Origin: Taeniopygia guttata
Lineage: Eukaryota > Chordata > Aves > Passeriformes > Estrildidae
DNA: 64,000 bases
NCBI RefSeq assembly: GCF_048771995.1
Contig: NC_133024.1
Location: 28,412,001-28,476,000 of the forward strand
Direction of reading: 5' to 3'
The notes under the pieces were generated by a model. That model worked only from the letters and a program-made list of their open reading frames with translations. It was not told the origin of the DNA and ran no database searches. Made by a program: the position numbers and the translations under genes. Numbering within the stretch: position 1 is the first letter of the stretch; every line of letters starts with the position of its first letter. Positions 34,151 through 62,590 of this stretch are shown one piece after another.

Positions 34151-34154
34151 GCAG

Positions 34155-34518
34155 AAAAATTCTATTGCTTGTGTATCACAAAATACTTTGATACATTTTT
34201 ATTACTGTGATTAATGTACTTCTGGAGGAGAAGAACAAAACAAGAACCAAAGTTCTAAGGTTTTATCAAGGGCTTATGCTTCAACAGACTTTTGACCCAA
34301 AGCAATAACACAACTGGTTGTAGAAAGATCAAAATTTAAATAAAATAGTTAATGATTTGTGTTCACTTATTGTCCATTTCTCAGTTCTGTTGACTGAGGT
34401 GTTTCACAAGACTTCTGTGCACGTATAAATACAGGGAGGTGAGATGCCCCTCATAAACAGCAGCCCTGCACAGGAGGAACTGCCCTCAGCTCTCCCCAGC
34501 CCTGCAGCTGGCATCGAG
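34155..34518 (+). promoter_or_regulatory. Promoter and non-coding exon 1 of crystallin-like gene 1
   Basis: A TATAAAT box lies at 34424-34430. About 25-30 bases on, a short exon (roughly 34455-34518) ends GGCATCGAG/GTAAGA, a strong donor. The same layout recurs at 43.87, 47.89 and 62.22 kb. About 250 bp before the TATA box also aligns with the region upstream of gene 3, including TTTGATACATTTTTATTACT, so the duplicated unit includes the upstream promoter. The exact start of transcription is inferred. Confidence 0.75.
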
Positions 34519-34915
34519 GTAAGAGGCACACTTTGCACAGGAGGGCTGGGAGGTTTCCTGGGCAGCTGCTGTGGAATGCAGGGGAAGGGAAGGAGGCTTC
34601 AGCGTTGGGCTGAGAGCTGCAGCACAGATGGGAGGCTCTGCTGTGTGCATGTGCAGAGACTGAACCCATCCTTCAGGGCACGAGGAGATGGCTGCTGCAG
34701 GAGAAACAAACCTTACCAAGGGACAGGGTGGAGGGGGCCAGTGATACACAGTTGAATGTGAGAGTATTTTACAACTTACACTGGGGGATATCTGTAAACC
34801 AACACATATATCTAATTAAAACTGGGTAGTTATGTGTACATAGCTCATTGTATATTGTCTTCCAACTGAAAATTTCTATGTCATGCCCTCACTCTTTTCC
34901 AGCTACTGCTATGTT
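34519..34915 (+). repeat. Conserved intron-1 block, copy 1 of 4
   Basis: It begins at the donor and is almost the same as the blocks at 43960, 47979 and 62319. Against the unit 3 block I count only three substitutions and one indel of about 9 bp in the first 255 bp. The tail from about 34760 is shared with units 2 and 4 but not with unit 3. It keeps open frames on both strands merely because the copies are so alike. It is not known to me as a repeat family. Confidence 0.85.
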
Positions 34916-35760
34916 TATTCTGCTAAAAATATTCTGCTATCTGTCTTTTCCCATCCCTTCTCAGAGTCAGCTAGAGGAACGGCTTTTTTAGTCTCATTTA
35001 TTTGTCCTGAAATGTAAATCTTTGTTTCAGTAACTGCTACATGATTTAGAGAGGGAGCTACTATCATAACTGACTGCTCATTACTATTTCTGCAGCTGTT
35101 ACTGATAAACACTCTGGCTTTTTAACTGAGCTCAGACAACTGTGGGGGATTAGATATGTGTATTGGTAGTAGTGTTACGAAAAGACATTTAAAGCCTGAA
35201 ATTCAGTCTGATTTAAAAAGCTGATTATTACAATTTGGTTGCTTCTTGGTGTATATCAAGAGAAGAAATCTCTTGATTTCAGTAAAATTAATATAAAAAG
35301 AAAATAAGGTGTTTCAGTGAATTTAATTTCTGCCCTTAAAAGACAGGTTTTTTCCCTCCTGATTTTATGTAAAAAATTCACTTTCTTTTAGAAATTAATT
35401 GCATGTCTCACTACTTTTACATTGCATTCTATGTGGCTCATGAAACTGACTCCAAACAATGAGTGCCAGTTTCTAAAACATTTCTCATCTGCAGCATCAA
35501 TTATCAACAGAAAGATTTATCATGAGTTGTATATTTTGTTTTGTTATTACTTAGGATACACCAATAATATGTTAAACAAAATGCTCAGGTGTCCCTCACT
35601 TGTATACATACTAAATTAAACTGGATTGTTGTGGTGTACAAATTTCATTTTACTTTTTTCCTCCAAACTAAAATTTCTGTGTCATGTCCTCACTCTTTCA
35701 CAACTGCTGCTATTTTTATCTTCTGCTAAAATTGTTTTGTATTTCCTTTTTACCTTTTGT
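34815..35760 (+). repeat. Internal duplication inside intron 1 of gene 1
   Basis: Two diverged copies of the late-intron segment lie at about 34815-34960 and 35610-35760. Both have a CTAA-TTAAACTGG start, then AAAATTTCT(A/G)TGTCATG and CCTCACTCTTT with a TGCTAT-TTTAT run. The extra copy makes this intron about 1.3 kb, against about 0.5 kb in genes 2 and 3. Confidence 0.65.
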
Positions 35761-35890
35761 CCCCTCTGGTTTCCAGCATTTCATGTCTGGTATATAAAGG
35801 TCTCTTACAAGCATTACCTGTTTTCTGTTTTCATTTTCTGTAGGCTGCCATCCAACAGCAGAAAATCCAAACCTCAGAAGCCCTGCTGAG

Positions 35891-36421
35891 ATGGGAAAAA
35901 TCATAGTTTATGAGCATGCTAACTTCCAGGGTATGTCCAAAGAATTCCACACCAACATTGCCAACCTAAAAGATGCAGATTGGAATGATTGTATCTCCTC
36001 AGTGAGAGTAATTGGCCATCCTTGGGTGGCTTATCAGCATGCAAACTATAAAGGACAGTTACTGGTACTTGAGGAGGGAGATCATGACTTCGTTGGTAAA
36101 AAGATGAATGACAAGATCAGCTCTCTGCAGGTGATCACTGAAAATCTGCACAATCCCCAGATCACTCTCTATGAGCATGCTGATTATCGAGGGAAGAGCA
36201 GAATAATAAGAGAAGCCACCAATCTGTCCAGGGGACATGACAATGACACCACATCTTCACACAAAGTCCAGAAAGGTGTCTGGCTGCTGTGTGAGCATGG
36301 TGATGGAAGTGGATTTCAATACATTGCCCGAGAGCATGAACACCTTCCAAATTACAAGGCAATCAAGTTCAATGACAAGCTTTCCTTCCTGCGTCCCCTT
36401 CGCCCTGGCTGTGGCTGTTAG
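35891..36421 (+). CDS. EDSP/EP37-like beta/gamma-crystallin protein, gene 1
   Basis: This 176-residue protein has two beta/gamma-crystallin domains (four Greek-key motifs) and no signal peptide. It is closest, in my judgement, to epidermal differentiation-specific proteins of amphibians and reptiles. Greek keys start at IVYEHANFQG (5-14), WVAYQHANYKG (45-55), ITLYEHADYRG (91-101) and WLLCEHGDGSG (131-141). Three copies of the Ca2+-binding pattern N/D-N/D-x-x-S/T-S are intact: NDCISS (32), NDKISS (73) and NDTTSS (118). The fourth is NDKLSF (161). The coding sequence is one exon that starts after a TAG acceptor (exon from 35844). The ATG at 35891 is in the same place in all three paralogs. It has four cysteines (34, 134, 174, 176), where the paralogs have only Cys134. 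Amphibian EP37 proteins have a further C-terminal part that is absent here. Function is inferred to be structural or Ca2+-binding in epithelium. Confidence 0.92.
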   Translation: MGKIIVYEHANFQGMSKEFHTNIANLKDADWNDCISSVRVIGHPWVAYQHANYKGQLLVLEEGDHDFVGKKMNDKISSLQVITENLHNPQITLYEHADYRGKSRIIREATNLSRGHDNDTTSSHKVQKGVWLLCEHGDGSGFQYIAREHEHLPNYKAIKFNDKLSFLRPLRPGCGC

Positions 36422-36790
36422 ATTGCAAATCCTGCAGCGCTGAGAAAAGATGCAGCTGCAGCAAGAAAATTGAGACCTTGTTCCCTGCCTCTGCTTTTGC
36501 TGCCCTTTCCCCCAGTGTCACAGGACCACCAGATATGAGAGCTCTCCTGCCCCACAAATGGCCTCTGCCATTGTCTGTAATCCATTTTGTGTGGGTGCCA
36601 ATAAAGAATCTTTTGCAATCAGCAGTGGATTTATTTTATGCAGTGTTTCGTGTAGGTAAACATTTTGCTTTCATGGTGAGATGTCTCTGTGTATCCAGAG
36701 AATGTTTTGTGCAGTCACTTGCAAATATTTTTCATGGATCTCTCCTGTAGAATTTTACCTCCTTCCAGTTTCACTGTTCAGAAACATTGC
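36422..36790 (+). other. 3' UTR, polyadenylation signal and shared downstream flank of gene 1
   Basis: AATAAA lies at 36600-36605 after a short 3' UTR that begins GATTGCAAATCCTGCAGCGC, as in gene 2. The flank to about 36780 (TTTCATGGTGAGATGTCTCT, then ATCCAGAGAATG) is shared with the flanks of genes 2 and 3, so the duplicated unit reaches about 170 bp beyond the mRNA end. Confidence 0.8.
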
Positions 36791-36902
36791 GACCAGACTA
36801 AAGAGCTTGGTAAGCATTTGGATCATTGCTGTGATGCTGAGCCAACTTTCACCTGTAACCTGTATTTAACTATCCCATGAATTCTGTATCTCAAGGCATT
36901 GA

Positions 36903-37997
36903 TCATAGAATCCTGGAATCCTATGAAGTCTGAGGCTGGGAGGTGCTTAAAGATCATTCCAACCCTTCTTTCATGGGCAATGACACCTTCCACTAGACCA
37001 GGTTGCTCGAAGTCCCATCCAACCTGGCCTTGAATACTTCCAGGGGCGAAATCCACAACCTCTCTAAACAACCTCTTTCAGTGCCTCATCAACTTCACAG
37101 TAAAGAACTTTTCCATAACATCCAATCTAAGTGTCTACTTTTTTAATTCAAAACCATTCCATCCTCATCTTGTTACTAGTTGCCCACTCAAAAAGCTGCT
37201 CCTGCTCTTTCTTATAAGCCCATTTCAAGAGCTGGAAGGCTGCAATGAGGTATCCCTGGAGCTTTCTTTTTTCTGAGATGAACAACCCCAGATTTCTCAA
37301 CCTGTCTTCATAGGAGAAGTGCTCCCACCCCATGACCATCTCCCAGTCTATGCTCTCATGTCTGGGATTGCCCCGACTCAGGTGCAGCACCTTGCACTTG
37401 GGCTTGTTGAACTTCATGAGGTAAGTATGGAATCATTTCTCAAGTTTGTCCAGGTCCCTCTGGATGGAATCCCATCCTTTTGTTGTGTCAGCTGCACCCC
37501 TCAGCTTTGTGTCATTTGCAGACTTGCTGAGGGTGTCATTGATAAAGATCTTAAAAAGTACTGGTCCCAGAACAGAGAACCCTGATGGACTCCAATTATC
37601 ACTGGTCTACTTCTGGGCATAGAGCCACTGACCACAACTCTCTGTGTGTCTATTTTCCAAATAGTTCACCCTTCAAACCCATGTATCTCAGTTTGGAGAT
37701 AAGGATGCCATGTGGGACCATGCCAAAGTTCTTAAGGAAGTCGAGGTATGCGAGTGACATTGGCTGGTTTCCCCTTTTTGATGGCTGCAATCCCTCCATC
37801 ACAGACGGCCACCAGATTGGTCAGGCATAATCTGCCCTTAGTAAAGCCATGCAGGCTGTCTTGGATCATCTTACTTGTCTTGCACATGCCTTAGAATTGT
37901 TCCCATGGGGATCTGCTCCATGATGTTCACAGGCGTATAGGTGAGGCTCACTGCTCTATAGTTCCCCAGATCTTCCTTCCTCCCCCTTTTAAAAATA
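36903..37997 (-). mobile_element. CR1 LINE, 3' portion, minus orientation
   Basis: The plus strand shows the reversed CR1 3' end (ATCATAGAATCCTGGAATCC and ACCTTCCACTAGACCAGGTT). It continues into reverse-transcriptase coding text on the minus strand, such as MKFNKPKCKVLHLSRGNPRH and SYEDRLRNLGLF. These two are joined by an internal deletion. The copy continues beyond the LTR listed next, at 38396. Confidence 0.93.
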
Positions 37998-38003
37998 AGA
38001 TGA

Positions 38004-38389
38004 TGTTACAGAATTTTTGAGAAGGAGAGGGCGTGATTTATGTCTGGAATGAGATTTGAGCTACTCCAGCCTAGGCCTCAGATTTGGGCCTTGTGAGGCC
38101 CTCTAAGACTGTGATGCAATTAGAATTTATGTTAAGGTGTGATGGGAAGCACTGGGCTGTCTGGGTGTGAAGTAGTATAGGTTTATAGTGTGAGGTTTAG
38201 GCCACCTTAAGGCAAAGGTAAACAATGTTAGCTTGCCAATGAGAGTGCCTTTGTAAACTGTAAACTATATTGAAGTGTATATAAACTGCCATCTTCTCAC
38301 TAATAAATGGAGAATGTTGCATTAACCATATTGGTTCGATGTGCGTTCTTCCTGTCCAGCTTTCCTGTTTTATGAGGACCCTGGTTTCA
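38004..38389 (+). mobile_element. Solo LTR, ERVK-like, inserted in CR1
   Basis: A 386-bp segment begins TGTTACAG and ends GGTTTCA. It is flanked on both sides by the same six bases, AGATGA (37998-38003 and 38390-38395). It holds a TATATAAA box near 38278 and AATAAA at 38302, in the order expected of an LTR on the plus strand. CR1 text stops at its left edge and resumes at its right edge. The 6-bp duplication suits class II (ERVK-type) retroviruses. No internal retroviral genes remain. It is younger than the CR1 it interrupts. Confidence 0.85.
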
Positions 38390-38395
38390 AGATGA

Positions 38396-38838
38396 TATTT
38401 CCCTTCTTCCATTCACCAAGGATTTCACCTTAAGGCCATGACTTTTCAAATATGATGGAGGGTGGCTTGGCAACAACTTGAGCCAGTTCCCTTAGGACCC
38501 TGGGATGCATGTCATCCAGTCCCATAGACTTGTGTCTTTTCAGCTTCATCAAGTGGTCTCAAACCTGCTCTTCACTTACAGTAGGAGGGATTTTGTTCCC
38601 CCAGTCACCATCTGCATTTTCAGTGACTCCAGAGGCATGGGAAAGCTGACTTCCAGTGAAGACTGAGGCAAGGAACACACTGAGTACCTCAGCCTTCTTC
38701 ACATCCATTGCCACCAGTTCTTCCATCTTGTTTACTGGCAGAGAGTGGGCATCGCACTCTACTTGGCCTTTGTTTTCTGCCCAGTGTTCTTGCAAAAGCC
38801 CTGGTGTGTCAGTCCACACAGGCACAACTACAACAAAT
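38396..38838 (-). mobile_element. CR1 LINE, continuation past the LTR
   Basis: The same minus-orientation CR1 resumes with TATGATGGAGGGTGGCTTGG. It encodes on the minus strand KMEELVAMDVKKAEVLSVF and [13 protein letters not shown], the region upstream of the reverse-transcriptase core. Together with 36903-37997 it is one 5'-truncated insertion split by the LTR. Confidence 0.88.
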
Positions 38839-38840
38839 AG

Positions 38841-38888
38841 CTTTACTCTTTGTGTTCCAGCCAGTTGTGGCTGGAACACAGAGTAAAG
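38841..38888. repeat. Near-perfect hairpin, 21-23 bp arms with a 4-base loop
   Basis: CTTTACTC-TGTGTTCCAGCCA is followed after GTTG by its reverse complement. The left arm has two extra T. It sits exactly at the junction between the CR1 copy and the crystallin exon fragment, which suggests a template-switch event during the rearrangement that joined them. Confidence 0.85.
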
Positions 38889-38894
38889 TTATTT

Positions 38895-39045
38895 CCATTT
38901 CCATGGGCTTCTGAACACCCAAGCTATATACAGGCCAGTTACTCTGGTGCTTGAGGAGGGAAAACACAGCATTGTTGGTGAGAGATGAAGGATAGGATCA
39001 GCTCTCTGCAGCTGATTGCTGAAAATCTGCACAATCCACACATGA
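38895..39045 (+). pseudogene. Fragment of an EDSP-like crystallin coding exon
   Basis: About 150 bp matches codons 45-90 of the intact genes. Readable pieces are LVLEEG followed by a frame change, then MKDRISSLQLIAENLHNPH, against MNDKISSLQVITENLHNPQ in gene 1. The beginning and end of the coding exon are missing and no promoter or exon 1 lies nearby. The first Asn of the Ca2+ motif has become Lys. It is a dead remnant of a further array member; together with the orphan promoter at 43.7 kb it may derive from one lost gene or two. Confidence 0.88.
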
Positions 39046-39049
39046 AGCC

Positions 39050-41310
39050 CAGAACACGCTGTGGTATCAACTGCTGGGCTTTGTCCCACTTTGAAATAAA
39101 CACTGCAGGCTGTGCTGACGTGTCAGCCTCTCCTGCTCCTCTGCTTGGCTCAGGTGGGCAGATGCCATGGGGATAACTCAGAATCCATGTATTTTGGGGC
39201 ACGTCTTACTGCTTTGCAGCCAGTTTCTGGTTTGCTTGCTCTGTTCACCAAAGTGGGAATTCCAAATTCAATTCCAAGAGCATCTGGCATTCTTCCTACT
39301 CTACGTATTTTATAGTAGCAAGTCAATTGGCAAATGTCACTTTCTGCCTGAAAGAGTCTGTGGAAGAACTTATTTTGGAAGTCTTATTGAAGTGCCTTGG
39401 TCGTATCTGAGAGATCCCTTTCAGAATCTGAGCATGATAATGGTGTTACACGGGCACTGTTAATAGGAGAGAGATTATTTTGGATGTCTCTATTTATATT
39501 TCCTAGGAAATATACTTAATGACATTTCCTTTTTGAAAACCACCATTTCTTAGAGAGGAAAGAAGGTATTATTTATTTTCTTGGCATATGTAACTGAGAA
39601 GTTCCTTACAGCCAGGAGCTCTCTGAAGCAGATATCTCTGAGTTTTCCCTCTGTTTCTCTTAGGCAAAGAAAATATTACCTCCCAAAGCTGCTGTTACTC
39701 TGATTTTAATCAGTGGATGTTCCTATCTGTCTCTGTCTCTCCTGGTCACCAGAGGGGCGATTTTATTCACTTTGAGGGTTGTGAGCAGGTGATATAGTTG
39801 CCCTTGGGGTGCAGTGCAGTGCAGACCAGCTGGCAATTTCTACACTGCTCAGATAGCAGTATCCTTGGAATCATGTTCTCTGGTCATCCTCACCCCTTAC
39901 CCTCATGGCAGATTTTAGGAGGCCTCTCAGAAAGATACATCACCAACATGGCATTCCCTACTGTACTTCTCTCATGAGGTTTATCCCTATAAAAGCACAC
40001 TGTGCAATACTTATGCCCAGTAAAAACTAAAGCATTGTCACCTCTTCCTGCCAACCCAGGAATAAACTGGAAGTCCCAAACCCTGCTAAACTACACATGG
40101 TATTAAAAAGAGTAAAATGATTGGTTGCAAAATCAACAGTCAGCAAAAAACCTTCACAGAGGGGATTATTAACCCAAAGTGCAAATGGATATTTGAAGAG
40201 AATGCAGTGTTAAGGAAGGTTTGTAACAAGTGATATTCCAAAAGGAGATGTCTAGACAAGAAAGCTTAGACACTATGGCTGTGACAGAGAGGTGATACAT
40301 ACACAGACTCAACTTTTCTTGGCTTGATCAGAACCTTCCTCAGAACAGGTTCAGGCATGTTTGGGTAAACAAGGAACATAAAATGTGGGCCTAAAGTCAG
40401 ATCTCGTATGCCCAGTAAAAGGTGATGTCACACATTAACCATTTATGTTATTTCTTAATGTTGCCTTTGTTTCCATGTTTCAGGGGTCTGGCACAGCTCA
40501 TTTGGATCAGCTTTGTGAGACTCTTCATCTGCAGGGCAGCTCCTTTGCCCAAGCAGCCCTCTGTCAGAGGAGTGGAGGGAAAACAGCTGGATATGCTGCT
40601 GCACATGCCTTAATCTATGGGGTTTTTTTGGCTAGATGATTCAACATTCGCTTGGGGAAACTCAAGCTCTTTTCCAAGTACAGAATTCTCTAACTTGCTG
40701 TTTGCAAGCTAGAAAGTTTATACCGTGCCTTTCTTCCTACTCATTTCATCTGGTACTGGAATTCCCACAGCATGAATTTGCAGCATCTTTTAATGTATCC
40801 AACACTAAAAAGCCACTGTGAGAAGCAGGGCTGAAACAACTTATTTTTTCCCCATGTGCATCTTCAAACACATCTTCCCTTTATCCAACAACAGAGCTGC
40901 CCCACTTTCTATTCAGTTGCTGATGCTTCCTTTATTTTTTTTTTTTCTTGGTTTCCTTTGTTAGAGTATTCCTCCTCCTTATGCTGCTGTGTTTTCTTGG
41001 CAGTGCCTTATTGACTCTTAATCAGAGCAACACTACAGCAAAGCTTAAATGAGATTCTCCATCCCTGTAAATCGAATCTCAAAAAATACAAAGCATGCTG
41101 CTCACAAAAGCAGTAATGAGAGACTTTCCTCCAGAGATCTGTAGAGGTCATCAGGAAAATAAATGTGATACAGTAAAATGTGTGCAGCTGGTTGTTCCTA
41201 TAAGGAATTCCCTTCCCTGGAGCAAACTTGTTTTTGTCATTTACATGGTCCCAGAGCCCAGTCCCAGTCTCCCCATCAAATCTATATGTTTCCAACTTAA
41301 AAAGAAGGAA
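39050..41310. other. Spacer, no feature recognised
   Basis: Sequence between the exon fragment and the next CR1 piece. Short open frames occur but none resembles a known protein. A T-rich run lies near 40935-40948. Nothing else could be supported. Confidence 0.45.
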
Positions 41311-41314
41311 GTTG

Positions 41315-41450
41315 TGGGGACCTTGTCAAAGGCCTTGCAGAAATCCAAGTAGATGACATCTGTAGCCCTTCCCTTTTCCACTGAGGTAGTCACTCCACTG
41401 TACAAGGCCAGTAGGTTATTTGAACTGTACCTTCCTTTGCTGAAGCTTGC
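41315..41450 (-). mobile_element. CR1 LINE reverse-transcriptase fragment
   Basis: The minus strand encodes [20 protein letters not shown], the CR1 reverse-transcriptase A-motif region, between short flanks of the same family ([16 protein letters not shown]). Both ends are truncated. Confidence 0.9.
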
Positions 41451-41744
41451 TAGCCGTCTCAAATCACTTCCCTGTCTTTTCTGTGCCTACAAATACAGAA
41501 AGAGAGAAGCAGGAAGCAAATTGAGTTACTTAACTGTTAACACACCTCCTTGCTGAATCACCCTAACTGAGCAAGTCAATGGTTCAGTGAGTAGGTGAAT
41601 ACTCTGATAAAAGATAAGAAATCTTTATAGAGCTCTTCTCCCTTGAGTAAGTACCATTTCTTGGAGCAGTAATGCTGTGCTGCTGGCACCAAAATGCCTG
41701 TGTTGTCATTCACACAGTGAGTACATGATAATCCTTATAAGGAT

Positions 41745-43175
41745 CAATGGAAACTGTGAACAAATGGTGACCCACAAGGGTCCATTCTGCCACCAGTGTT
41801 ATTAAATATCTTCCTTGATGTCATAGACAAGTCAGGTACACCCTCAGCAAGTTTGCAGATGACACCAAGCTGAGTTGTGTGTTGTTTTGCTGGAAGGAAG
41901 GGACTGTGAAGTGTTGGAATCTGAGGTATTGATGATTCCGAGATTGTAGAAAGTCTCTGTCTTTCTGCCCCCCTGCCAAAGAAGAAGTCATAATCTGTCT
42001 GTGCTGTTTTCAAGGTTGTTTATTCTTGCTTATCTCTAACATGTTCTGCTGCCCTGCCGCAGGTCTGTCCTGCAGGGCAGCGTGTGGGGCTCTGCCCCTC
42101 AGTGGGATGTTACAAACATTATATACCAGAAACTACCTGTGCTGTATTAACAATAATGTGCCAATATCTGTCACCTACGTTGAACAGTGTGTCCTCAGCC
42201 TAAACCAATAGAAAAATGCCAACACTACAGTGAAACATGGAGGGCATGAAGAAGGAGAAAAAGGACAAGACACACCCAATTTCCTCCATCTTGTCCCCTT
42301 TGAACCCCTAATCTAAAATCCTAAAATTTTCCTTTTGCACCCGTGCCACACTTAATTATTACTTATATCAAGCACTCAGAGCTTGTAATTCATCCTGTAA
42401 GATTGAAAACTCTTTTCCATGGACAGAGATCAGAGACAGTGTCTCTGGGGGCTCTGTACAGGGGTGTTCCCGACCCCCTGCCAGGGTCCCAGGCCTTCCA
42501 GGGCAGCCAGAGGGAAGCCCTGGATTCCCACAGTGAAGAAGGACCTCGAGAACCTTGAGAAATGGCCCGATGGGAACCCCCTAAATTTCAGCAAGGCTGA
42601 GTGCAAGATCCTGCAACTGGATGTCAGAGCAATCACCATGAGCAGTGTAGGCTGAGGAATGAATGGGCTGAGGGCAGCCCTGTAAAAAAGGAACTGAGAA
42701 CACCAGTGCATGAGAAACTGGACATGACCTGACACTTGCCACCTAGAAAGCCAGCTGTATCCTGGGCTGCATAAAATGTAGTTTGCAGGATGAGGGAGAT
42801 GATTCTTGCCTTCTACTCTGCTGTGGTGAGACTCTGCATGGAGTACTGCATGCAGATGTGGGGTTTCCTGAACAAGAGAGACACAGCCCTGTTACAGCAG
42901 GTCTAGAGGTGGGCCATGAAAATGGTCAGAGGGCTGGAGAACCTCCTACAAAGAAAGGCAGAGATACTTGGAGTTGTTCAGCCTAGAGAAGACAAGGCTT
43001 CTCATTTCAAAATATAAAGGGGCTTATAAGAAAGGCAGAGAAAGAAATTTTTACTATGATCTTTCAAGTTGAAAGAGCGTAGGTTTAAGCTAGATATTAC
43101 GAAGAAATTCTTCACTGTGAGGGTGGTGAGGCACTGGAAAAGGTTTTACAGAGAAGTTGTGGATGCCCCATCCTT
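41745..43175 (+). mobile_element. CR1 LINE, plus orientation, split by a solo LTR
   Basis: Left of the LTR it shows the GVPQG-to-FADDTK region (AGTTTGCAGATGACACCAAG). Right of it the reading continues with DLENLEKWPDGNPLNFSKAE, then CKILQL. It runs on to the 3' region (GAAATTCTTCACTGTGAGGG and GTTGTGGATGCCCCATCC). The LTR at 41912-42532 is a later insertion. The 5' part and the last 3' bases are missing. Confidence 0.9.
41912..42532 (-). mobile_element. Solo LTR, ERVK-like, minus orientation, inserted in CR1
   Basis: A 621-bp segment runs TGTTGGAATC to GGATTCCCACA on the plus strand, so its ends are short inverted repeats beginning TG and ending CA. Both flanks carry GTGAAG (41906-41911 and 42533-42538), a 6-bp target duplication typical of class II retroviruses. 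Read on the minus strand it has a TATATAAT box near 42122 and an AATAAA near 42018. The CR1 reading is interrupted and resumes exactly at its edges. It looks like a whole solo LTR with no internal retroviral sequence. Its layout resembles passerine ERVK LTRs as I remember them. Confidence 0.9.
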
Positions 43176-43234
43176 GGATCTCCCCCCTTAGTCGGTTCAT
43201 AGGCACCATCAGCTTGGGTGTGAGTGTTGTGTGC

Positions 43235-43645: not shown

Positions 43646-43689
43646 TTACTATGGTTCAGAAGGCCTCTGAAGGAGGACAAACATGAAGC

Positions 43690-44372
43690 CAAGTTCTAAA
43701 GTTATCAGGTCACTCACATGTCAGTGGAATTTTGAACCAGAGCAATGAGATGCCTGGTTGTAGGGCATTGAAACCAAGATAGAATATTTAATGATTTTTG
43801 ACCCCTGAGCATGATATTGACCATTCCCAGTACCTTGGAATTGGGTGATTCACACTTTCACTTCTGTGCAAGTATAAATATAGGAAGATGAGATGCCCTT
43901 CCCAAACAGCACTGGAGGAATTGCCCTCAGCTCTCCCCGGCCCTGCAGCTGGCATCGAGGTAAGAGGCACACTTTGCACAGGAGAGCTGGGAGGTTTCCT
44001 GGGCAGGTGCTGTGGAATGCAGGGGAAGGGAAGGAGGCTTCAGCGTTGGGCTGAGAGCTGCAGCACAGACGGGAGGCTCTGCTGTGTGCATGTGCAGAGA
44101 CTGAACCCATCCTTCAGGGCACGAGGAGATGGCTGCTGCAGGAGAAACAAACCTTACCAAGGGACAGGGTGGAGGGGGCCAGGGATACACAGTTGTGGGG
44201 GATGAATGTGAGAGTATTTTACAACTTACACTGGGGGATATCTGTAAACCAACACATACATCTAATTAAAACTGGGTAGTTATGTGTACATAGCTCATAG
44301 TACATTGTCTTCCAAATGAAAATTTCTGTGTCATGCCCTCACTCCTTTGCAGATGCTGCTATGTTTATTCTG
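43690..44372 (+). pseudogene. Orphan EDSP-like unit: promoter, exon 1 and intron start, no coding exon
   Basis: TATAAAT lies at 43873-43879, exon 1 ends GGCATCGAG at 43959 and the GTAAGA donor follows. The conserved intron block (43960-44372) matches units 1 and 2 to TGCTATGTTTATTCTGG. Similarity then stops about 150 bp short of where exon 2 should begin, and no beta/gamma-crystallin coding sequence follows before 47.8 kb. The promoter looks as intact as those of the live genes, so it might still be transcribed. Confidence 0.8.
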
Positions 44373-45719: not shown

Positions 45720-46650
45720 GCCTGCAGCCTGGGCTGCAGCAGCCGAGCAGGAGGAGTTCCTGGGGCTGAGCTCCGCTCTTCCTGAGCCATCCCGACACAC
45801 GGCACTCGGAAAGTGACCTGGCCAGGAAGACACCCTGGAACTTTGGCTTCCCCCCACAGAAGAAGCACTCTCATGTAACTTTAGTGTTCTTTCCTTTTAC
45901 TTTCAATCCTGATCAGCTCTTTGTAGGAACTATCGTGGGCTTTCTCAGAAGAGCACCTTGTGTGTTGAAATCCTACAGATCAGCAGATGCTCTCTCAGTT
46001 CTCTTTTTCTTGCACTGGTGGTTGGGTGTGATTCTACTTCTACTCTCTCTCAGAAGCAGGAGAACCACCTCATGAATTATTCCCTTCAAAAACCCCAAAT
46101 TCACCAAGAAACCTTCAAACACTAAACGGAGGATAGACAAATTGCAGGGAGACATTAACTGCTGAGTGCAAGGTCAATGCAAAGGAGCTCATTAGACTCA
46201 CTGAGTCCATGTCCTGAGTGCACAGAAATCCCCATCAGGACAGCATCAGTCTGACAAGGCTGAATGGGATGGACGAGGGACATTGATCATCTTTATTTAT
46301 AGCAGGATTCCTCAGGAGCAAGATGGCTCAGGAAATACTGGGATTTGCCTGTCTTGGTCCTTATGTGATGAGCTTGAACGATCCGGGGAACCAGGAGGAT
46401 TGTAGGGTTGGTGGGTAATTGAAGTTGGAAGTGACCTTTGGTTGCCATTGGATCCAGTCAGCTGCTTAACACAGGTACAGCTGTGAGGTGAATTATGGTT
46501 GTTGGTTGTAACGACGTTCCCAACAGTTGGTGGCTTTATCCAGTCTGGTATTGAAAACCTCAGAGTATGCAGACTATCCAAGTTCTCTGTGTGGTGTGAT
46601 TTAAAATTTTCTGACCTCATCAGGAAATTTTTCTCAGCCATGTAAGAGAC
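45720..46650 (+). repeat. Inverted repeat arm A, left copy
   Basis: Reverse complement of about 59765-60662. Shared landmarks include GAGCAGGAGGAGTTCCTGGG, TCGGAAAGTGACCTGGCCAG, CTTTCAATCCTGATCAGCTC and CTTTATTTATAGCAGGATTC. The right end (46380-46650) is a minus-oriented CR1 3' end, cut off where the homology stops. Confidence 0.88.
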
Positions 46651-47849: not shown

Positions 47850-47978
47850 CATGCTGTCACCTAGGGTGTTGCACAAGACTTCAGTGCGAGCTATAAATGG
47901 AGGCAGGTGAGATGCCCTTCTCAAATAGCACTGGAGGAACTGCCCTCAGCTCTCCCCAGCCCTGCAGCTGGCATCGAG
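47850..47978 (+). promoter_or_regulatory. Promoter and non-coding exon 1 of crystallin-like gene 2
   Basis: The TATAAAT box is at 47892-47898. Exon 1 (about 47922-47978) ends GGCATCGAG before GTAAGA. The stretch just before the TATA box (TTGCACAAGACTTCAGTGC) is shared with units 1 and 3, but further upstream the similarity is lost, unlike units 1, 3 and the orphan. Confidence 0.75.
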
Positions 47979-48400
47979 GTAAGAGGCACACTTTGCACAG
48001 GAGGGCTGGGAGGTTTCCTGGGCAGCTGCTGTGGAATGCAGGGGAAGGGAAGGAGGCTCCAGCGTTGGGCTGAGAGCTGCAGCACAGATGGGAGGCTCTG
48101 CTGTGTGCATGTGCAGAGACTGAACCCATCCTTCAGGGCACGAGGAGATGGCTGCTGCAGGAGAAACAAACCGTACCAAGGGACAGGGTGGAGGGGGCCA
48201 GGGATACACAGTTGTGGGGGGTGAATGTGAGAGTATTTTACAACTTACACTGGGGGATATCTGTAAACCAACACATATATCTAATTAAAACTGGGTAGTT
48301 ATGTGTACATAGCTCATTGTACATTGTCTTCCAAATAAAAATTTCTGTGTCATGCCCTCACTCTTTTCCAGCTGCTGCTATGTTTATTCTGCTAAAAACA
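47979..48400 (+). repeat. Conserved intron-1 block, copy 3 of 4
   Basis: It starts at the donor and is nearly the same as the blocks of unit 1 and the orphan unit for about 400 bp, to TGCTGCTATGTTTATTCTG. Only a few substitutions were seen, for example in CCAGCGTTGGGC and CCGTACCAAGG. Confidence 0.85.
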
Positions 48401-48554: not shown

Positions 48555-49085
48555 ATGGGCAAAATCATCATTTATGAGCATGCCAACTTCCAGGGTTTGT
48601 CCAGGGAATTCACAACTAGCATTTCCAATCTACAAGATGTAAATTGGAATGATATTGTCTCCTCAGTGAAAGTAATTGGCCAGCCTTGGGTGGCTTATGA
48701 GCATTCAAACTACGGAGGCCGATTTCTGGTATTTGAGGAGGGAGAACATAAGTTTGTTGGAGAAGAGATGAATGACAAGATCAGTTCTCTGCAGGTGATC
48801 ACTGAAAATCTGCACGATCCCCAGATCACTCTCTACGAACATGCTGATTATCAAGGGAGGAGCAGAATAATAACAGAAGAAACCAACCTGGGTGAAGGAC
48901 ATGACAATGACATCATGTCTTCTCACAAAGTCCAGAGAGGTGTGTGGCTGCTGTGTGAAAACAGCGATGGAAGTGGAATTCAATACCTTGCTCGAGAACA
49001 TGAAAACCTTCCAAATTACACGACAATCAATTTCAATGACAAGCTTTCCTTCCTGCGTCCCCTTCGCCCAGGCAGTGACTCTTAG
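48555..49085 (+). CDS. EDSP/EP37-like beta/gamma-crystallin protein, gene 2
   Basis: This 176-residue paralog has no gaps against genes 1 and 3; by eye it is about 75% identical to gene 1 and 73% to gene 3. Greek keys start at [10 protein letters not shown] (5-14), WVAYEHSNYGG (45-55), ITLYEHADYQG (91-101) and WLLCENSDGSG (131-141). Ca2+-type motifs are NDIVSS (32), NDKISS (73) and NDIMSS (118); the fourth is NDKLSF. It has a single cysteine (134). The coding exon begins after a TTTTGTGCAG acceptor (exon from 48502). It ends RPLRPGSDS-stop. The gene lies in the loop of the A/B inverted repeat and is transcribed in the same direction as its neighbours. Expression in epidermis or another stratified epithelium is a guess from the family. 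Confidence 0.92.
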   Translation: MGKIIIYEHANFQGLSREFTTSISNLQDVNWNDIVSSVKVIGQPWVAYEHSNYGGRFLVFEEGEHKFVGEEMNDKISSLQVITENLHDPQITLYEHADYQGRSRIITEETNLGEGHDNDIMSSHKVQRGVWLLCENSDGSGIQYLAREHENLPNYTTINFNDKLSFLRPLRPGSDS

Positions 49086-56100: not shown

Positions 56101-59100
56101 ATGTTGTTTAATGATGAATGAAAACTTACTGTATTATTGAGCCATTTTGCACATTTTTAAGTGTTTAAAAAAAAAAAAAAAAACAAAAAACAAGAAAGTC
56201 TGTTTCCTCTTGCTTCACATTACCTGGTTTGTCCCAACTACAGGTTCCGTTCTTGCTCAACTATATTACACTAAAGACTTTTCAGGCTATGGTATGCAAA
56301 GAGAGCTGTGTTTTTGTCATCTAGTGGCTCCACTTTAGCTGGAGAACCTGCTCTGTATGGATTAGGCATGTGAAAACATTGCATTTCCCATAGGCATGCT
56401 ATCAGGACTGAATGTTTTTCAAGCTCTCTCCCCTGCCTTCCATGTTTTCAGAAGAAGCAGACCATTTGCTTTGGAGGGAGGATAGTTTTATGAGCATTTA
56501 ATTTAATCTTAATAAGGATGTGCTTTGCATTTCTTCCCTATTTTTGCTGCAGTTTGACCTTGACAGCAACACCTGCCTGTAAATCAAGAGAACAATTGAT
56601 GTGCTGGTACCTGTGGCATCACACCTCAGAGAATGAGATTATAAATGTTCCAAAAAATAATGTGAGGGAGAGAAGGGTTTTTCAGAGGAAATCAGTGGAC
56701 AGGTGTGTGTGTGAAGGATTTAGTTACTAGAAGAGGCTGGGGGGAAGAAGCCAGCCAAATGCTCATCCTACACCCATCCCTAAGTAATTGGATAAGCTCT
56801 GCTGATATCAACATTTCTGAGACGCTGTTGCCACAGCTCACAACAGGCAGTGCACCCTGCTGTGGAGGGCGTGAATAATGCCACATATAACAGATAACAT
56901 ATATGATATCTGAAATACATAATAGATTATTTATATATGATACAGTGTATATTCTATCTAATGCATAGTATGTCATATAAAATATGAAACATACAATGTG
57001 TATATCATATAATCATATTATATCATATATCATATAATATCTTATGAACTTGGTCCTCTTCAATATCTCTTCTTCAAGACTGGGATATCTGGGGAACCTG
57101 AGTTCTTTTATGGTAGGCAGAAAAATTTGGTGGGAATTTTGCTCCTCTCAAAACCAGCTCCTCTGTCTTAAGATCCCTTTAGTTAATCAGTGTTTTCCCA
57201 AACATGATGTGGAAGAGTATATTTAATTCCAAATTCACAACTCTGTTTCTTGTCAATGATAAGATCACTTATGTTGTCAAATTTGATCTTGTTGCCAAAA
57301 ATATACTGGAGGTTCAGTTATCATGCATCAGTTCAGCTGTTGAGCTGGGAACCAATACTGTCTGAGGAACCAGTTTCAGAAAAAAAAAACTATTTCAAAG
57401 AACTGTGTTCAGAAGAGGCTTTCTGAAAATACAATTTGTTCAGCAAATGAGTAAAAAAAAAAAAGTGGCACAAATACTTCAAAATTAATTTTTCAGCTTA
57501 ACAAGAAGGAAATAATCTAAATACTGAAACAAAATTTTAAATTATAAGGAACAATAACATGTGACTAGGCATTTCACTGCTGTGTTCTGACCATGCTTTA
57601 GTCATTAAATGGCGTATGAAAACTTCATTATGCCTGCAGGCAGAACCTTGGCATTAAAGGCAGCTCGGTGGCGAGGGAACACTGCTTTGGGTACATCTTG
57701 TCTTTTAGCAGTCCACTGTTAGCATCCTGCACACATATTACAGGAAGCAGGTATGCCTGCTCCTCATCTGGCTTCCCAGCAGACAAGATCTGACGTTGAG
57801 CCTAATTCATACATTCGGCAGCAAGCTAAACCAGCCTGGTCTTGTTCTGTGGTTGTTTCTGCCTGTGAAACAGTGATTCCTCTTACCACCTTTCTGAGGA
57901 CAGGTTATCTGCAGGGTGCTTTACAGGCTTTACAGGACAGACACGTTCAAGACTTATCTTGCTAAGGCACCAGCGGAGGCACTCTCATGACTCAGCCAAG
58001 GCAGCCCTGCAGCCCAGTGAGCCCACAAATTTGGGAATCCAGCCTCAGAGGTGCTGATGGTTGGTTCCACATGGCAGTGCAGCATGGCACAGAAAGCTGC
58101 TCTGGAGCCTAAATGGATGTAAGGTGGCAGCGTGGGGCTGCACCTGAGTGAGTGAATCCTGCTGTAAATCAGCTGCTCCGAGCACACTGACTGCTCCTGG
58201 CTGGCAGCTCGGGGACCCAGGCTCACACCTCTCCTTAGGGCAGGGCTGTGCCCTACAGACACAGCAGCTCGTGCTGGCCCCTTGCCAGAGGAACACAAGG
58301 GTGTACACAGAGACTGTGTGTGACTCTTTGGGTGGGCAGGGGAACAGGGGGACTGATGTGTCAACTGTTGGCTGGACTGAGGCAACAGAGTGCACCTAAA
58401 CCTTGTGACAGGCCTCTTAACCCCATTTGAGTGTAGATCCAGGTCACACAGTGCTTATTTGCAGTGTTGTCACTTTTCAACAATTGGACTTTTCAAATGC
58501 TAGTCTTAATAAATCTTATTTTTCATTAGCGTTAGTGTCAAAATCTTTGAAAGTTCTGCACTTCTGCTGTGTAAGAGAGGGAATCTTTATTCTTGAAGAA
58601 GGATAAAGATATCCTTGAGAGAAGATGTCTTGAAAAAATCTCTTTCTAAATTTCATGGATGAAGTATCTTTCTCCTGGGGTCTTATTACTGATAATTCTG
58701 TCAGTTGAGAAACTCCCTAATGACCCTAATAACTACAGATGAGTGACAGGTTTGTAAAAGCAAAAAGCCACACTCTTCCACCAGGCTACTGCATTCCCAT
58801 CTGGATCTTCATGTTTGTTACTCCATAAATCAGCAGGATCTCCCCTGCTGCTAAAATAGTTTAGAGACTTTAGTTATTCAGTCTTTAACATAAAAAGGAT
58901 AGATCATCCATGGGCTGAAACAACAGAGCGCTGACATTATTTCTTGCAGATTCTCACCCTCTCTTGGCACACAGGATCATTATCCTTTTTGGGACTGCTT
59001 TTTTTCCAGCTACATAGGTATCACTTTTTTGGTTGCTTTTTCACCAAGACACTTCTCATGCCCCTAAGGTGGAGACTTGCAGTCCCCATATATTTACAAC

Positions 59101-59149
59101 TGAGACACTTATGCTGCAGGAGGTGAGCAGGTGCTTGTTTAACAAATTT
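53111..59149. other. Gene-poor spacer in the right arm of the inverted repeat
   Basis: Six kilobases without a supportable exon. It holds an A run of 17 at 56167-56183 and a TA-rich segment around 56880-57045 built from CATATA/TATCATATAA-like words. Open frames are short and lack domain-like content. Confidence 0.45.
56880..57045. repeat. TA-rich low-complexity segment
   Basis: Irregular repeats of ATATGATAT, CATATAAT and TATCATAT with almost no G or C. No regular period was found. Confidence 0.75.
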
Positions 59150-59995
59150 GCCTGTGACAGCCCTTGACAACAGATCTGCCATCCAAAAGGGTCTTGATGG
59201 CACCTGGAATGGGCTGGCAAGGGCCCTTATAAAATTGGAAGTGGACAAAATCCTGCATCTGGGAAGGAAGAAAGGAAGAACCGCTTGCAATGACACATGT
59301 TGGGCACTGACTCTCTGGGGAGCAGCTCTGCTGAAAAAGACCTTGTGGGTTTTGTAGGCACAAACTGAACATGAACCAAATCTGCCTGGGAGCAAAAATG
59401 ACCAACAGCATCCTGGGCTGCCTAAGTCAGCAGATTAAGGAGCTCATTGCTTCTTTGGCAGCATTCAGAACACTGCATCCAGTTCTGGGTGATGTAGCAT
59501 AAAAAGGTGTTGGTAAACTGGGAGAGTTCAATGGGGAGCCATGGAAAAGGTCAGGGGACTGCAGCACTTGCCCTGGGAGGAGAAACTGGGGAATAGGGCA
59601 TATTCAGATGGGAGAAAATGTTTTGGTGGGACCTAATAGCAGCTTTCCAATGCTTATGACCAAGTTATGGAGAATATGAAGTTAAACTTTTCAGAGTGAA
59701 TATTGTGGGAGGATGAAAATGAGAGAGACATTAACCCAATCAAGAGAGTATTCAACAGGTATAGTGAGAAGCTTTTTCATGATGATGTCAGAAAATTTTA
59801 AATCACGCCACACAGAGAATTTGGATAGTCTGCATACTCCGAGGTTTTCTAGACCTGACTGGATAAAGCACCAGGAACCATAATTCACCTCACAGCTGTA
59901 CCTGTGTTAAGCAGCTGGCTGGATCCAATGGCAACCAAAGGTCACTTCCAACTTCAATTACCCACCAACCCTACAATCCTCCTGGCTCCCTGGAT
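59150..59995 (+). mobile_element. CR1 LINE, plus orientation, running into inverted repeat arm A
   Basis: CR1 text starts near AGTGGACAAAATCCTGCATC. It passes AAAATGACCAACAGCATCCT and GCATCCAGTTCTGGGTGATG, and ends with ACTGGATAAAGCACC, then GGTCACTTCCAACTTCAATT. Its last 230 bp belong to arm A and are also present, reversed, at 46380-46650. Confidence 0.85.
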
Positions 59996-60662
59996 CATTC
60001 AAGCTCATCACATAAGGACCAAGACAGGCAAATCCCAGTATTTCCTGAGCCATCTTGCTCCTGAGGAATCCTGCTATAAATAAAGATGATCAATGTCCCT
60101 CGTCCATCCCATTCAGCCTTGTCAGACTGATGCTGTCCTGATGGGGATGGGGATTTTTGTGCACTCAGGACATGGACTCAGTGAGTCTAATGAGCTCCTT
60201 TGCATTGACCTTGCACTCAGCAGTTAATGTCTCCCTGCAATTTGTCTCTCCTCCATTTAGTGTTTGGAGATTTCTTGGTAAATTTGGGGATTTTTGGAGG
60301 GAAATTATTCATGATGTGGTTCTCCTGCTTTCAGGGAGTAGAAGTAGAATCACACCCAACCACCAGTGCAAGAAAAAGAGAACTGAGAGAGCATCTGCTG
60401 ATCTGTAGGATTTCAATACACAAGATGGTCTTCTGAGAAAGCCCATGATAGTTCCTACAAAGAGCTGATCAGGATTGAAAGTAAAAGGAAAGAACACTAA
60501 AGTTACACAGGGTGTTTGGGTTTTTTGTGCAAAAGCCCCAGTGGCAGGGTGTCTTCCTGGCCAAGTGACTTTCCGAGTGCCATGTGTAGGGATAGCTCAG
60601 GATGAGCAGAGTTCAGCCCCAGGAACTCCTCCTGCTCGGCTGCTGAATCCAGGCTGCAGAAG
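59765..60662 (-). repeat. Inverted repeat arm A, right copy
   Basis: Reverse complement of 45720-46650 over about 900 bp, with only small indels. It includes the CR1 3' end on its left and about 670 bp of sequence that I cannot assign to a family, ending at AATCCAGGCTGCAG. Confidence 0.88.
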
Positions 60663-61080
60663 TATTACCTGAAGCATTTTTTTCAGACTGAATTGGGAAA
60701 ATGTTTGGAGTCATATTTAGCACAATAATATGGAAAGAAACACCATCAGATCATGGAAAGAAACACCATCACTAATCGGATTCAAGTATTTAAATTCAAA
60801 ACCGACAGTATAAAGCATCATTTACAATGTTCAATATTTTGTACAAAATAAGTATCTCCAAACATCTATGGTTGTCTTTTACCATGCTTCCGCTTTAAAA
60901 TTCTGGTTTTGAAGCTGGTATTGCACTGTACCAGTACTTCTCTATTTACACTCCCTTTCTGCATGCCAAACTATGACTTTCTGTCTGGTTTTGAGACAAC
61001 AGCATTGGTGCTTTTGTTGATCATCCACAATAGTACCATGCCCATCTATTACTATGCATAAATATATACATGAATACATA
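60663..61080. other. Short spacer
   Basis: It contains a small tandem duplication of ATGGAAAGAAACACCATCA near 60730-60770. Nothing else was recognised. Confidence 0.5.
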
Positions 61081-61084
61081 TGGC

Positions 61085-61803
61085 AAGGAATCAGAGAATG
61101 GCTTGGGCTGCAAGGGACCCTGAAGAACCCTTTGAGGGATGGGGCATCCACACTTTCAGAGGGCTGAACATGAGCCATCAGTCTTCCCAAGTGGCCAAGG
61201 AAGCCCATGGCACCTGGCCTGTATCAGCAATGGTGTGGCCAGCAGGACACAGGCAGGGATTGTTCCTCTGTACTCAGCACGGGTGAGGCCACACCTGGAA
61301 TCCTGTGCTCATTTTGGGACCCCCACTAGGAGAAAGATATTGAAGTGCTGGAGCAAGTCCAGAGAAGGGCAACAAAGGTAGTGAAGGTTCTGGAGCACAA
61401 GTCCTGTGAGGAGCTGCTGGGGGAGCTGAGGGTTTTTATCCTGGAGAAAAGGATGCTCAGGGCAGATATGTTTACTTTTGGCAGTACCTGAAAGGATATT
61501 GTGACGAGGTAGGAGTTTGGCCCTTTTCCAGGCAGTTAGTGGTGGGACAAGGGGAAATGACCTTCAGTTGTGTATGGGGAGGTTCAGTCTGGATATTAGG
61601 AAACATTTCCTAATTGAAAGATTGTTAAGGTTTGGAATGGGCTGCCCAGGGAAGTGGTAGGGTCACCATCCCTGAAAATATTCAAAACACAAGTAGAAGC
61701 AGTCCTTTGCAAAATGGTTTAGTGTGTGTAGTGGCATTTGATTCAAGGCTGGATTTGTTGATCTTGGTGGCTTTTTCCAACATCAATGATACTCTGATTG
61801 TAA
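61085..61803 (+). mobile_element. Two CR1 LINE pieces head to head, mostly plus orientation
   Basis: A short reversed CR1 3' start (ATCAGAGAATGGCTTGGGCT, to about 61145) is followed by a longer plus-strand CR1. The latter passes CCAGAGAAGGGCAACAAAGG and ATTAGGAAACATTTCC and ends near GATGATCTT-like text at 61760-61800 (GGCTTTTTCCAACATCAATG). Confidence 0.85.
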
Positions 61804-61939
61804 GGGGAAGAGGGAAAATAAAAAGAAAAATATTACGTGAATGTCACCACTGTCACTTGGAATCTTCCATCAACACTCTTAGTAAGACTAAGGTTGTGTA
61901 TTCAGTATTATTCCCAGAAAAGCAAAAATGTAAACTCAA

Positions 61940-62318
61940 ACAGGCAGAAACATCCTGTAGCCTGTGTGTCACAAAATACTTTGATACATTTTTATTACTT
62001 TGATTCCACTTTCGTCTGGAGGAGAAGGACAAACAGGATTGAATTTGCAAGGTTTCATCAAGTCACTTGCACTTCACTGGACTTTTGAACAAGAGAAAGA
62101 AGATGTCTGATCATGGGAACATCTATTCTAAGTCAGGATAGTTAATGAGTTTTGACCCCTGGTGGCATGGTACCACTTCCCAGTTCTGTGGAATTGGGTG
62201 GTGCAAAAGACTTTTGAGTGAGCTATAAATGGAGGCTGGTAAGATGCCCTTTCCAAAGAGCAGCCCTGCCCTGGAGGAACTGCCCTCAGCTCTCCCCAGC
62301 CCTGCAGCTGGCATCGAG
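61940..62318 (+). promoter_or_regulatory. Promoter and non-coding exon 1 of crystallin-like gene 3
   Basis: TATAAAT lies at 62224-62230. Exon 1 (about 62254-62318) ends GGCATCGAG before GTAAGA. The upstream 250 bp aligns with that of unit 1 (TTTGATACATTTTTATTACT, then TCTGGAGGAGAAG) and in part with the orphan unit (AATGA-TTTTGACCCCTG), so it probably holds shared control elements. Confidence 0.75.
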
Positions 62319-62590
62319 GTAAGAGGCACACTTTGCACAGGAGGGCTGGGAGGTTTCCTGGGCAGCTGCTGTGGAATGCAGGGGAAGGGAAGGAGGCTTC
62401 AGCGTTGGGCTGAGAGCTGCAGCACAGACGGGAGGCTCTGCTGTGTGCATGTGCAGAGACTGAACCCATCCTTCAGGGCACGAGGAGATGGCTGCTGCAG
62501 GAGAAACAAACCTTACCGAGGGACAGGGTGGAGGGGGCCAGGGATACACAGTTGTGGGGGTTGAATGTGAGAGTATTTTACAACTTATTT
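62319..62590 (+). repeat. Conserved intron-1 block, copy 4 of 4
   Basis: Nearly the same as the other three blocks from the donor to TATTTTACAACTTA, where the similarity drops sharply; the other three go on matching for about 150 bp more. Confidence 0.85.

What the first reader, a model, noticed from the sequence alone, without database searches (positions are those of the whole stretch)
34490..62590. Intron-1 block nearly identical in four units while the coding exons have diverged
Seen: the segment from late exon 1 into intron 1 (34490-34760, 43930-44205, 47950-48235, 62290-62580) differs by only about three substitutions and one small indel between units 1 and 3. The 176-residue proteins differ at about 44-47 positions. 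Sequence before the TATA box, the late intron and the coding exon are all clearly more diverged, so the near-identity is bounded. Inference: either ongoing gene conversion limited to this block, or strong constraint on an intronic enhancer, a non-coding RNA or a small peptide. Even the unit with no coding exon keeps it, which favours conversion or a function independent of the protein.
Basis: partly seen in the sequence, partly recalled or inferred. Interest (0 to 1): 0.75.

Follow-up and report, generated by a model that had tools for sequence, protein, structure and literature searches.

The report
Shared gene start in finch genes
In a row of zebra finch skin-protein genes, a 310-base stretch at the start of each gene has been kept nearly identical, most likely by DNA copying between neighbours, while the proteins drifted apart; the process is known, and here it is caught in a narrow, telling place.

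Summary
The window lies in what is almost certainly the zebra finch genome, in a tandem cluster of EDSP genes (beta/gamma-crystallin proteins). A core of 307-318 bp runs from just inside exon 1 through the first ~260 bp of intron 1 (U1 34471-34778). Its K2P distance is 0.010-0.026 in all ten pairs of five units; the fifth lies just outside the window. Coding dS among the same units is 0.26-0.43 (recent pair U1-U5 excepted). A whole-genome search finds the block at five places, all here.

Best reading: repeated interlocus gene conversion, not constraint. U1 and U5 share ~3.9 kb that differs by 1.4% in other non-coding DNA and by 1.7% in the core, so the core is not slow. Near-identity ends at different places in different pairs. 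A protein tree rejects one recent origin of the coding exons (AU p=2e-15). The core is G+C-rich (0.57-0.59) in A+T-rich introns, as GC-biased conversion would give. RNA-structure, peptide and dispersed-repeat readings found no support. Closest precedent: mammalian BEX/WEX/GASP 5' exons. No other bird's DNA was within reach, so the between-species test is undone. Why the exchange centres on the gene start is inferred.

The parts
34471..34778 (+). U1 homogenised core (most of exon 1, splice donor, first ~260 bp of intron 1)
   Evidence: K2P 0.013-0.023 to U2-U5; segment limits
34779..34938 (+). U1 'tail': intron stretch also near-identical in U2, U3 and U5 but not in U4
   Evidence: K2P 0.021-0.066 against U2/U3/U5 and 0.405 against U4, measured over 34779-34920
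34424..34520 (+). U1 TATA box (34424) to splice donor GT (34519-34520); exon 1 inferred at about 34455-34518
   Evidence: motif positions in all five units; transcription start inferred, not measured
35891..36421 (+). U1 coding exon, 176 aa EDSP
   Evidence: ORF; Pfam Crystall E=1.1e-32
43911..44228 (+). U2 homogenised core; orphan unit with TATA (43873) and donor (43960) but no coding exon found downstream
44229..44372 (+). U2 tail; homology to the other units ends at 44372
47930..48247 (+). U3 homogenised core
48248..48398 (+). U3 tail, near-identical to U1, U2 and U5
48555..49085 (+). U3 coding exon, 176 aa EDSP
   Evidence: 99% identical to a Taeniopygia guttata protein
62270..62587 (+). 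U4 homogenised core; near-identity breaks at 62587 against all four other units
62885..63415 (+). U4 coding exon, 176 aa EDSP
34409..38353 (+). Segment recently shared with U5 (outside the window, genome C1:28482418-28486351): about 1.4% different in non-coding DNA outside the core, while just upstream (34046-34408) the two differ by about 30%

Best explanation
The block is a patch of concerted evolution. Five intact EDSP coding exons (U1, U3, U4, U5, U6) and five promoter/exon-1 modules (U1-U5, U2 without a coding exon) stand in tandem. Breaks or ectopic pairing near the transcription start of one unit are repaired from a neighbouring unit, which copies stretches of the 5' end of the transcription unit; the near-identical segments now measure about 300-480 bp. 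Repeated events keep exon 1 and early intron 1 nearly identical, while the coding exons, late introns and upstream sequence diverge. Repair favouring G and C has probably helped make the core G+C-rich, which in turn keeps it easy to pair. Shown by sequence: recent homogenisation, bounded and mosaic tracts, old coding paralogues, no slow-down of the core between U1 and U5. Inferred: conversion rather than paired unequal crossovers, and the bias of recombination toward gene starts in a bird without PRDM9 as the reason for the location (I give that part about 0.5).
For: (1) Core K2P 0.010-0.026 for all ten pairs against dS 0.26-0.43 for the same units' coding exons, U1-U5 excepted; Fisher p 1e-9 to 2e-19 in the five of six coding-unit pairs tested. 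(2) U1-U5 as clock: core 5/297, other shared non-coding DNA 43/3055, Fisher p=0.61. A constraint strong enough to explain U3-U4 (about 0.045 of neutral) predicts 0.19 differences; P(>=5)=2e-6. (3) Right ends differ by pair: 34778 in all four pairs with U4, 34894 in U1-U2 and U2-U5, 34929 in U1-U3 and U3-U5; U2-U3 runs to 34922, where U2's homology ends. (4) Upstream of the block U1, U2, U4 and U5 stay alignable at 48-83% per 50-column window (U1-U4 71.5% over 281 bp), so the block sits between old homologous flanks. (5) In the core U4-U5 (3/307) are closer than the sister copies U1-U5 (5/307); small numbers. (6) Four-gamete conflicts inside the core in 7 of 10 site pairs, including 34544 against 34742 and the 9-bp indel (the indel was entered by hand). 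(7) Protein tree: U1/U5, U3 and U4/U6 fall in different clades, each with other passerines; the AU test rejects one clade of the five proteins, p=1.8e-15, and of U1+U5+U3, p=1.8e-6. (8) GC 0.57-0.59 in the core against 0.33-0.37 in the rest of the introns. Zebra finch gene conversion favours GC at 59% and the species lacks functional PRDM9 (PMC12047795, sections 13 and 14 read).
Against: No DNA from another bird could be compared. The core is not a CpG island (CpG observed/expected 0.13-0.21, window 0.18), while finch recombination is enriched at CpG islands with no further enrichment at transcription starts once CpG islands are allowed for (PMC12047795 section 13), so the location argument is weak. 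The mean non-crossover tract there is ~32 bp, so 300-480 bp needs longer or repeated events. Two of the three core sites where U1 and U5 differ and both states recur in other units (34629, 34718) are CpG transitions, which can recur by mutation. The longest-run permutation test reaches P<0.05 (uncorrected) in 6 of 10 pairs only, and much of its power must come from sites outside the core, which has 11 of the 209 polymorphic columns. Counting private changes only (2 substitutions and a 1-bp deletion between U1 and U5), the clock is weaker: P(>=2)=0.016 at constraint factor 0.045 and 0.07 at 0.1.
Confidence: 0.88

Rival explanations
1. Strong purifying selection on a regulatory element (intronic enhancer, splicing or promoter-proximal element) keeps the core unchanged in every unit.
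For: The core holds the splice donor and most of exon 1, and survives in orphan U2.
Against: U1 and U5 differ in the core as much as in the rest of their shared non-coding DNA. The near-identical stretch has different right ends in different pairs. U6 has an intact coding exon without a recognisable block.
Confidence: 0.04
2. A recently spread promoter/exon-1 module: copies were inserted before old coding exons by segmental duplication or unequal crossing-over, not by conversion.
For: U2 is an orphan module. U1 and U5 carry a second, older copy of the tail at 35611-35739 and its counterpart, and U1-U5 share about 3.9 kb, so larger duplications or exchanges do happen here.
Against: The core lies between collinear homologous but diverged flanks (upstream in U1, U2, U4 and U5; late intron and coding exon in U1, U3, U4 and U5), which insertion does not predict; several insertions at the same place would be needed.
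Confidence: 0.06
3. The block encodes a conserved small peptide or a structured non-coding RNA.
For: A frame stays open across the core in all five units.
Against: The frame crosses the splice donor, U3 has no in-frame ATG ahead of the core and U5 is shifted by a 1-bp deletion. No Pfam match for the two ORFs tried, no protein at E<=0.001 for the U4 ORF, no Rfam match, fold z -0.02.
Confidence: 0.01
4. It is a dispersed repeat that landed in several units.
For: Only that it occurs in several copies.
Against: A whole-genome search finds five places, all in this cluster at matching positions (the tool warns that counts of repeats are lower bounds and very common words are skipped).
Confidence: 0.01

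Closest known systems
Mammalian BEX/WEX/GASP genes with the BGW element (Winter and Ponting 2005, PMC1274310; abstract and parts 1-2 of 3 of the Results read)
   Same: Non-coding first exon homogenised among linked genes while coding parts diverge; protein-coding sequence in a single late exon; raised G+C in the homogenised part; elements not upstream of a known coding gene; chimaeric gene histories.
   Different: Here a bird cluster of one gene family; most of the homogenised stretch is intron 1 rather than 5' UTR exon; PRDM9 is absent. The mammalian case has between-species trees of the 5' exon, which are missing here.
TSS-centred GC peaks shaped by recombination (PMC11323403; abstract and passages seen)
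   Same: G+C peak just downstream of the transcription start, sloping into intron 1, attributed largely to historic recombination.
   Different: That work is a genome-wide study of genes in general (substitution rates in apes, rodents and canids), not of exchange between paralogues.
Avian beta-keratin clusters (PMC2894828; passages seen)
   Same: Skin-structure multigene family of chicken and zebra finch, tested for gene conversion.
   Different: Gene conversion was said to be perhaps very rare among those sequences; the word intron does not occur in that text.

Membership tests
Concerted evolution of 5' non-coding exons by gene conversion (BEX/WEX/GASP type) | 5' region more alike among paralogues than the coding exons are | tested here: met
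   Core K2P 0.010-0.026 against dS 0.26-0.43 for the same units, U1-U5 excepted
Concerted evolution of 5' non-coding exons by gene conversion (BEX/WEX/GASP type) | 5' region more alike within a species than between species | not testable with these tools
   Other birds were reached as proteins only; one viral contigs pattern scan gave 0 hits
Concerted evolution of 5' non-coding exons by gene conversion (BEX/WEX/GASP type) | Coding exons keep a separate, older history | tested here: met
   AU test p=1.8e-15, 5 proteins with 27 of 120 listed homologues
Concerted evolution of 5' non-coding exons by gene conversion (BEX/WEX/GASP type) | Raised G+C in the converted part | tested here: met
   0.57-0.59 in the core against 0.33-0.37 in the rest of the introns; the less G+C-rich tail (0.36-0.38) is also near-identical in four units, so the match is not complete
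Gene conversion (general) | Bounded tracts with pair-specific ends between homologous, diverged flanks | tested here: met
   for U3 the upstream flank is barely alignable
Gene conversion (general) | Significant fragments by a permutation test | tested here: inconclusive
   6 of 10 pairs at uncorrected P<0.05 with a home-made longest-run test over 663 columns; GENECONV itself was not run
Recombination hotspot at a CpG island | CpG-rich, hypomethylated | tested here: not met
   CpG observed/expected 0.13-0.21; methylation data not available
EDSP, beta/gamma-crystallin family | Beta/gamma-crystallin domains | tested here: met
   PF00030 above its curated cut-off in 3 of 3 coding exons of the window; hits named EDSP

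The most novel reading that the evidence does not exclude
In birds, which lack PRDM9, recombination aimed at gene starts steadily homogenises the exon-1/intron-1 module of tandem genes. Promoter-proximal modules of a cluster thus evolve as one shared, G+C-rising unit while each coding exon goes its own way, and orphan modules such as U2 act as donors. The same signature would then be found in many avian gene clusters.
Probability: 0.25. Interest if true: 0.7.

Novelty: new member of a known kind. Interest (0 to 1): 0.42.

Why it matters
It is a clear case in which the start of a gene and its protein-coding part have different histories within one locus, and it carries an internal clock (U1/U5) that helps to separate conversion from constraint without other species. 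It gives a concrete place to test whether recombination near gene starts in a PRDM9-free genome drives exchange between paralogues. It also warns that a conserved intronic block among paralogues is not by itself evidence of a regulatory element.

Tried and rejected
Dispersed repeat: five genome places only, all in the cluster. Small peptide: a search with the U4 ORF gave no hit at E<=0.001 among 6 candidates; the frame lacks a start in U3 and is shifted in U5. Structured RNA: Rfam 0 matches at gathering threshold, fold z -0.02 on the + strand of U1 34520-34767 only. CpG island: not met. Full G-quadruplex motif (four runs of three or more Gs) in U1 34401-34800: none. Origin of U1 34939-35610: apart from its copy in U5, one 46-bp match in the 92-kb stretch. 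Sharing of both states at U1-U5 differences: 3 of 5 core substitutions, 2 of 3 in the tail (where U4 is so diverged that this says little), against 3 of 11 in late intron, coding exon and 3' region; I ran no test on these few, and two of the three core sites are CpG. Other-bird DNA: one exact-pattern scan of viral contigs, 0 hits. Paper searches on EDSP in birds and on recombination or gene conversion in birds and paralogues listed no report of this homogenised block; the lists were capped at 10 to 20 papers (one search held only 2) and I saw titles and abstract starts, so this is no proof of absence from print.

A genome-wide search for further EDSP genes did not complete, so EDSP genes elsewhere in this genome are not excluded; the block itself was searched genome-wide. 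No sequence before the window start was examined.

Full report
What the place is. The window is C1:28412001-28476000 of a 1.14-Gb, 41-contig genome without a name. The U3 protein is 99% identical to a Taeniopygia guttata protein, the next listed hit being Lonchura at 86%, so I take the genome as zebra finch. The 176-aa proteins are beta/gamma-crystallin proteins named EDSP, epidermal differentiation-specific protein (Pfam PF00030; names). Reading 28 kb past the window end (scripts from then on) gives this array, in window coordinates continued past 64000: U1 (TATA 34424, CDS 35891), a pseudo-exon fragment at 38883-39044, U2 (TATA 43873, no CDS), U3 (TATA 47892, CDS 48555), U4 (TATA 62224, CDS 62885), U5 (TATA 70433, CDS 71895) and U6 (CDS 74388, no block found). 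That is five intact coding exons and five promoter/exon-1 modules.

Within 34490-34760 U1 and U3 differ by three substitutions and one 9-bp indel; across the ten pairs the range is 3-7 substitutions. In the core 34471-34778 the K2P distance is 0.010-0.026 for every pair. Leaving out the recent pair U1-U5, it is 0.42-1.26 upstream of the TATA box, 0.19-0.32 between TATA and the core, 0.30-0.91 in the late intron and 0.16-0.30 in the 3' region (U6 included in the last two). Coding dS is 0.26-0.53 with U6 and 0.26-0.43 without it. The other refutation offered, a dispersed repeat, fails: five places in the genome, all in this cluster.

Conversion or constraint. The genome supplies its own control. 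U1 and U5 share about 3.9 kb, from 34409 (15 bp before the TATA box) to 38353; in 34046-34408 just upstream they show 110 differences in 363 positions besides gaps. Inside the shared stretch non-coding DNA outside the core differs at 43 of 3055 positions and the core at 5 of 297. So the core gathers changes as fast as its surroundings. If constraint explained why U3 and U4 differ by 1.6% in the core when their dS is 0.36, U1 and U5 should show about 0.2 differences there; five have P=2e-6. Counting only changes private to U1 or U5 (two substitutions and a 1-bp deletion), the contrast weakens to P=0.016 for the two substitutions.

The tracts are mosaic. The best-scoring near-identical segment ends on the right at 34778 in all four pairs with U4, at 34894 for U1-U2 and U2-U5, and at 34929 for U1-U3 and U3-U5; U2-U3 runs to 34922, where U2's homology ends, and U1-U5 runs to the end of the alignment. 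Left ends lie between 34440 and 34481, except U1-U5 at 34409. One constrained element would have one set of ends. In the core U4 and U5 differ at 3 of 307 sites, fewer than the sister copies U1 and U5 (5 of 307), and in the tail U3-U5 (2 of 142) are closer than U1-U5 (3 of 142); the numbers are small. Sites 34544, 34629, 34718, 34742 and the 9-bp indel (entered by hand) give 7 four-gamete conflicts in 10 comparisons; 34629 and 34718 are CpG transitions and could recur, but 34544 against 34742 and the indel does not depend on them. A longest-run permutation test is significant, uncorrected, in 6 of 10 pairs; only 11 of its 209 polymorphic columns lie in the core, so it speaks mainly about the tail and the edges.

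The coding exons are old and separate. In a tree of the five unit proteins and 27 of the 120 listed homologues, U1/U5 group with Oenanthe, Grallaria, Serilophus, Sapayoa and Smithornis copies, U3 with Lonchura and others, and U4 and U6 with a third set. Holding the five together is rejected (AU p=1.8e-15), as is U1+U5+U3 (p=1.8e-6) (a 60-row quick tree agrees in outline). U4 sits on a long branch. Grallaria, Sapayoa, Serilophus and Smithornis are suboscines by my recollection, so the split of the coding lineages would predate the oscine-suboscine split. With the published 5.0e-9 mutations per site per generation (PMC12047795 abstract), the core distances of 0.010-0.026 mean roughly 1-2.6 million generations, while dS 0.29 between U1 and U3 means about 29 million; this is rough arithmetic.

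Mechanism proposed. Repeated ectopic conversion between units, centred on the transcription start and early intron, explains the bounded near-identity, the mosaic ends, its presence in orphan U2 and the high G+C. G+C is 0.57-0.59 in the core and 0.33-0.37 in the rest of the introns, with a G-over-C skew of 0.22-0.27 on the coding strand. In zebra finch, non-crossovers favour G/C at 59% and PRDM9 is not functional (PMC12047795 sections 13 and 14 read). [quoted passage not shown] The G+C peak at gene starts, reaching into intron 1, is attributed largely to recombination history (PMC11323403, abstract and passages). Against this as the reason for the location: the core is CpG-poor (observed/expected 0.13-0.21, the whole window 0.18), and in zebra finch the enrichment is at CpG islands, with no further enrichment at transcription starts once these are allowed for. 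A mean tract of ~32 bp also means that the block was built by several or by unusually long events. The A+T-rich tail is homogenised in four units too, so high G+C is not a condition for exchange. I hold conversion itself at 0.88 and the gene-start explanation of its place at about 0.5.

What it is compared with known systems. Winter and Ponting described BEX, WEX and GASP genes whose 5' UTR exons are kept alike by conversion while coding parts diverge, with raised G+C and with elements lacking a known gene (PMC1274310, abstract and parts 1-2 of 3 of the Results). The finch block works like that and meets three of the four features I listed for it; the fourth, greater likeness within than between species, could not be tested. 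I file it as a new member of a known kind.

Functions considered. No RNA family, no unusual folding (z -0.02), no sign of a peptide: the open frame crosses the splice donor, lacks a start in U3, is shifted in U5 and finds no protein. An enhancer cannot be excluded from sequence, but the near-identity is no argument for one.

Noticed in passing
34409-38353 and genome C1:28482418-28486351 (U5): About 3.9 kb of U1 and its downstream DNA is shared with U5 at about 98.5%, with a sharp left edge 15 bp before the TATA box and homologous but about 30% different DNA upstream: a large recent exchange or duplication, separate from the core.
   Followed up: partly
L006 388-10000 region: U6, 74388-74918 in continued window coordinates (genome C1:28486388-28486918): An intact 176-aa coding exon without a recognisable promoter/exon-1 block; a TATATAAAC motif lies shortly upstream, close to the end of the DNA that is shared with U1's downstream side. 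It may use a different promoter or U5's.
   Followed up: partly
34811-34938 and 35611-35739: U1 (and U5) carry the intron tail twice: a near-identical copy next to the core and an older one, 77.5% identical, next to the coding exon; the 670 bp between match only U5 apart from one 46-bp stretch.
   Followed up: partly
43873-44372: Orphan unit U2 keeps TATA box and splice donor 4 kb upstream of U3; it could serve as an alternative first exon for U3.
   Followed up: no
38883-39044: Remnant of a further EDSP coding exon with stops in the frame.
   Followed up: partly
45732-46627 and 59775-60650: Pieces of a long inverted repeat, 87-98% complementary where paired, probably two insertions of one mobile element; a related stretch lies at about 66195-67023 beyond the window.
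   Followed up: no
3209-3634 and 5841-6146: Calsyntenin C-terminal part (+) and mitochondrial carrier part (-) by Pfam, genes in the same window as the cluster.
   Followed up: partly
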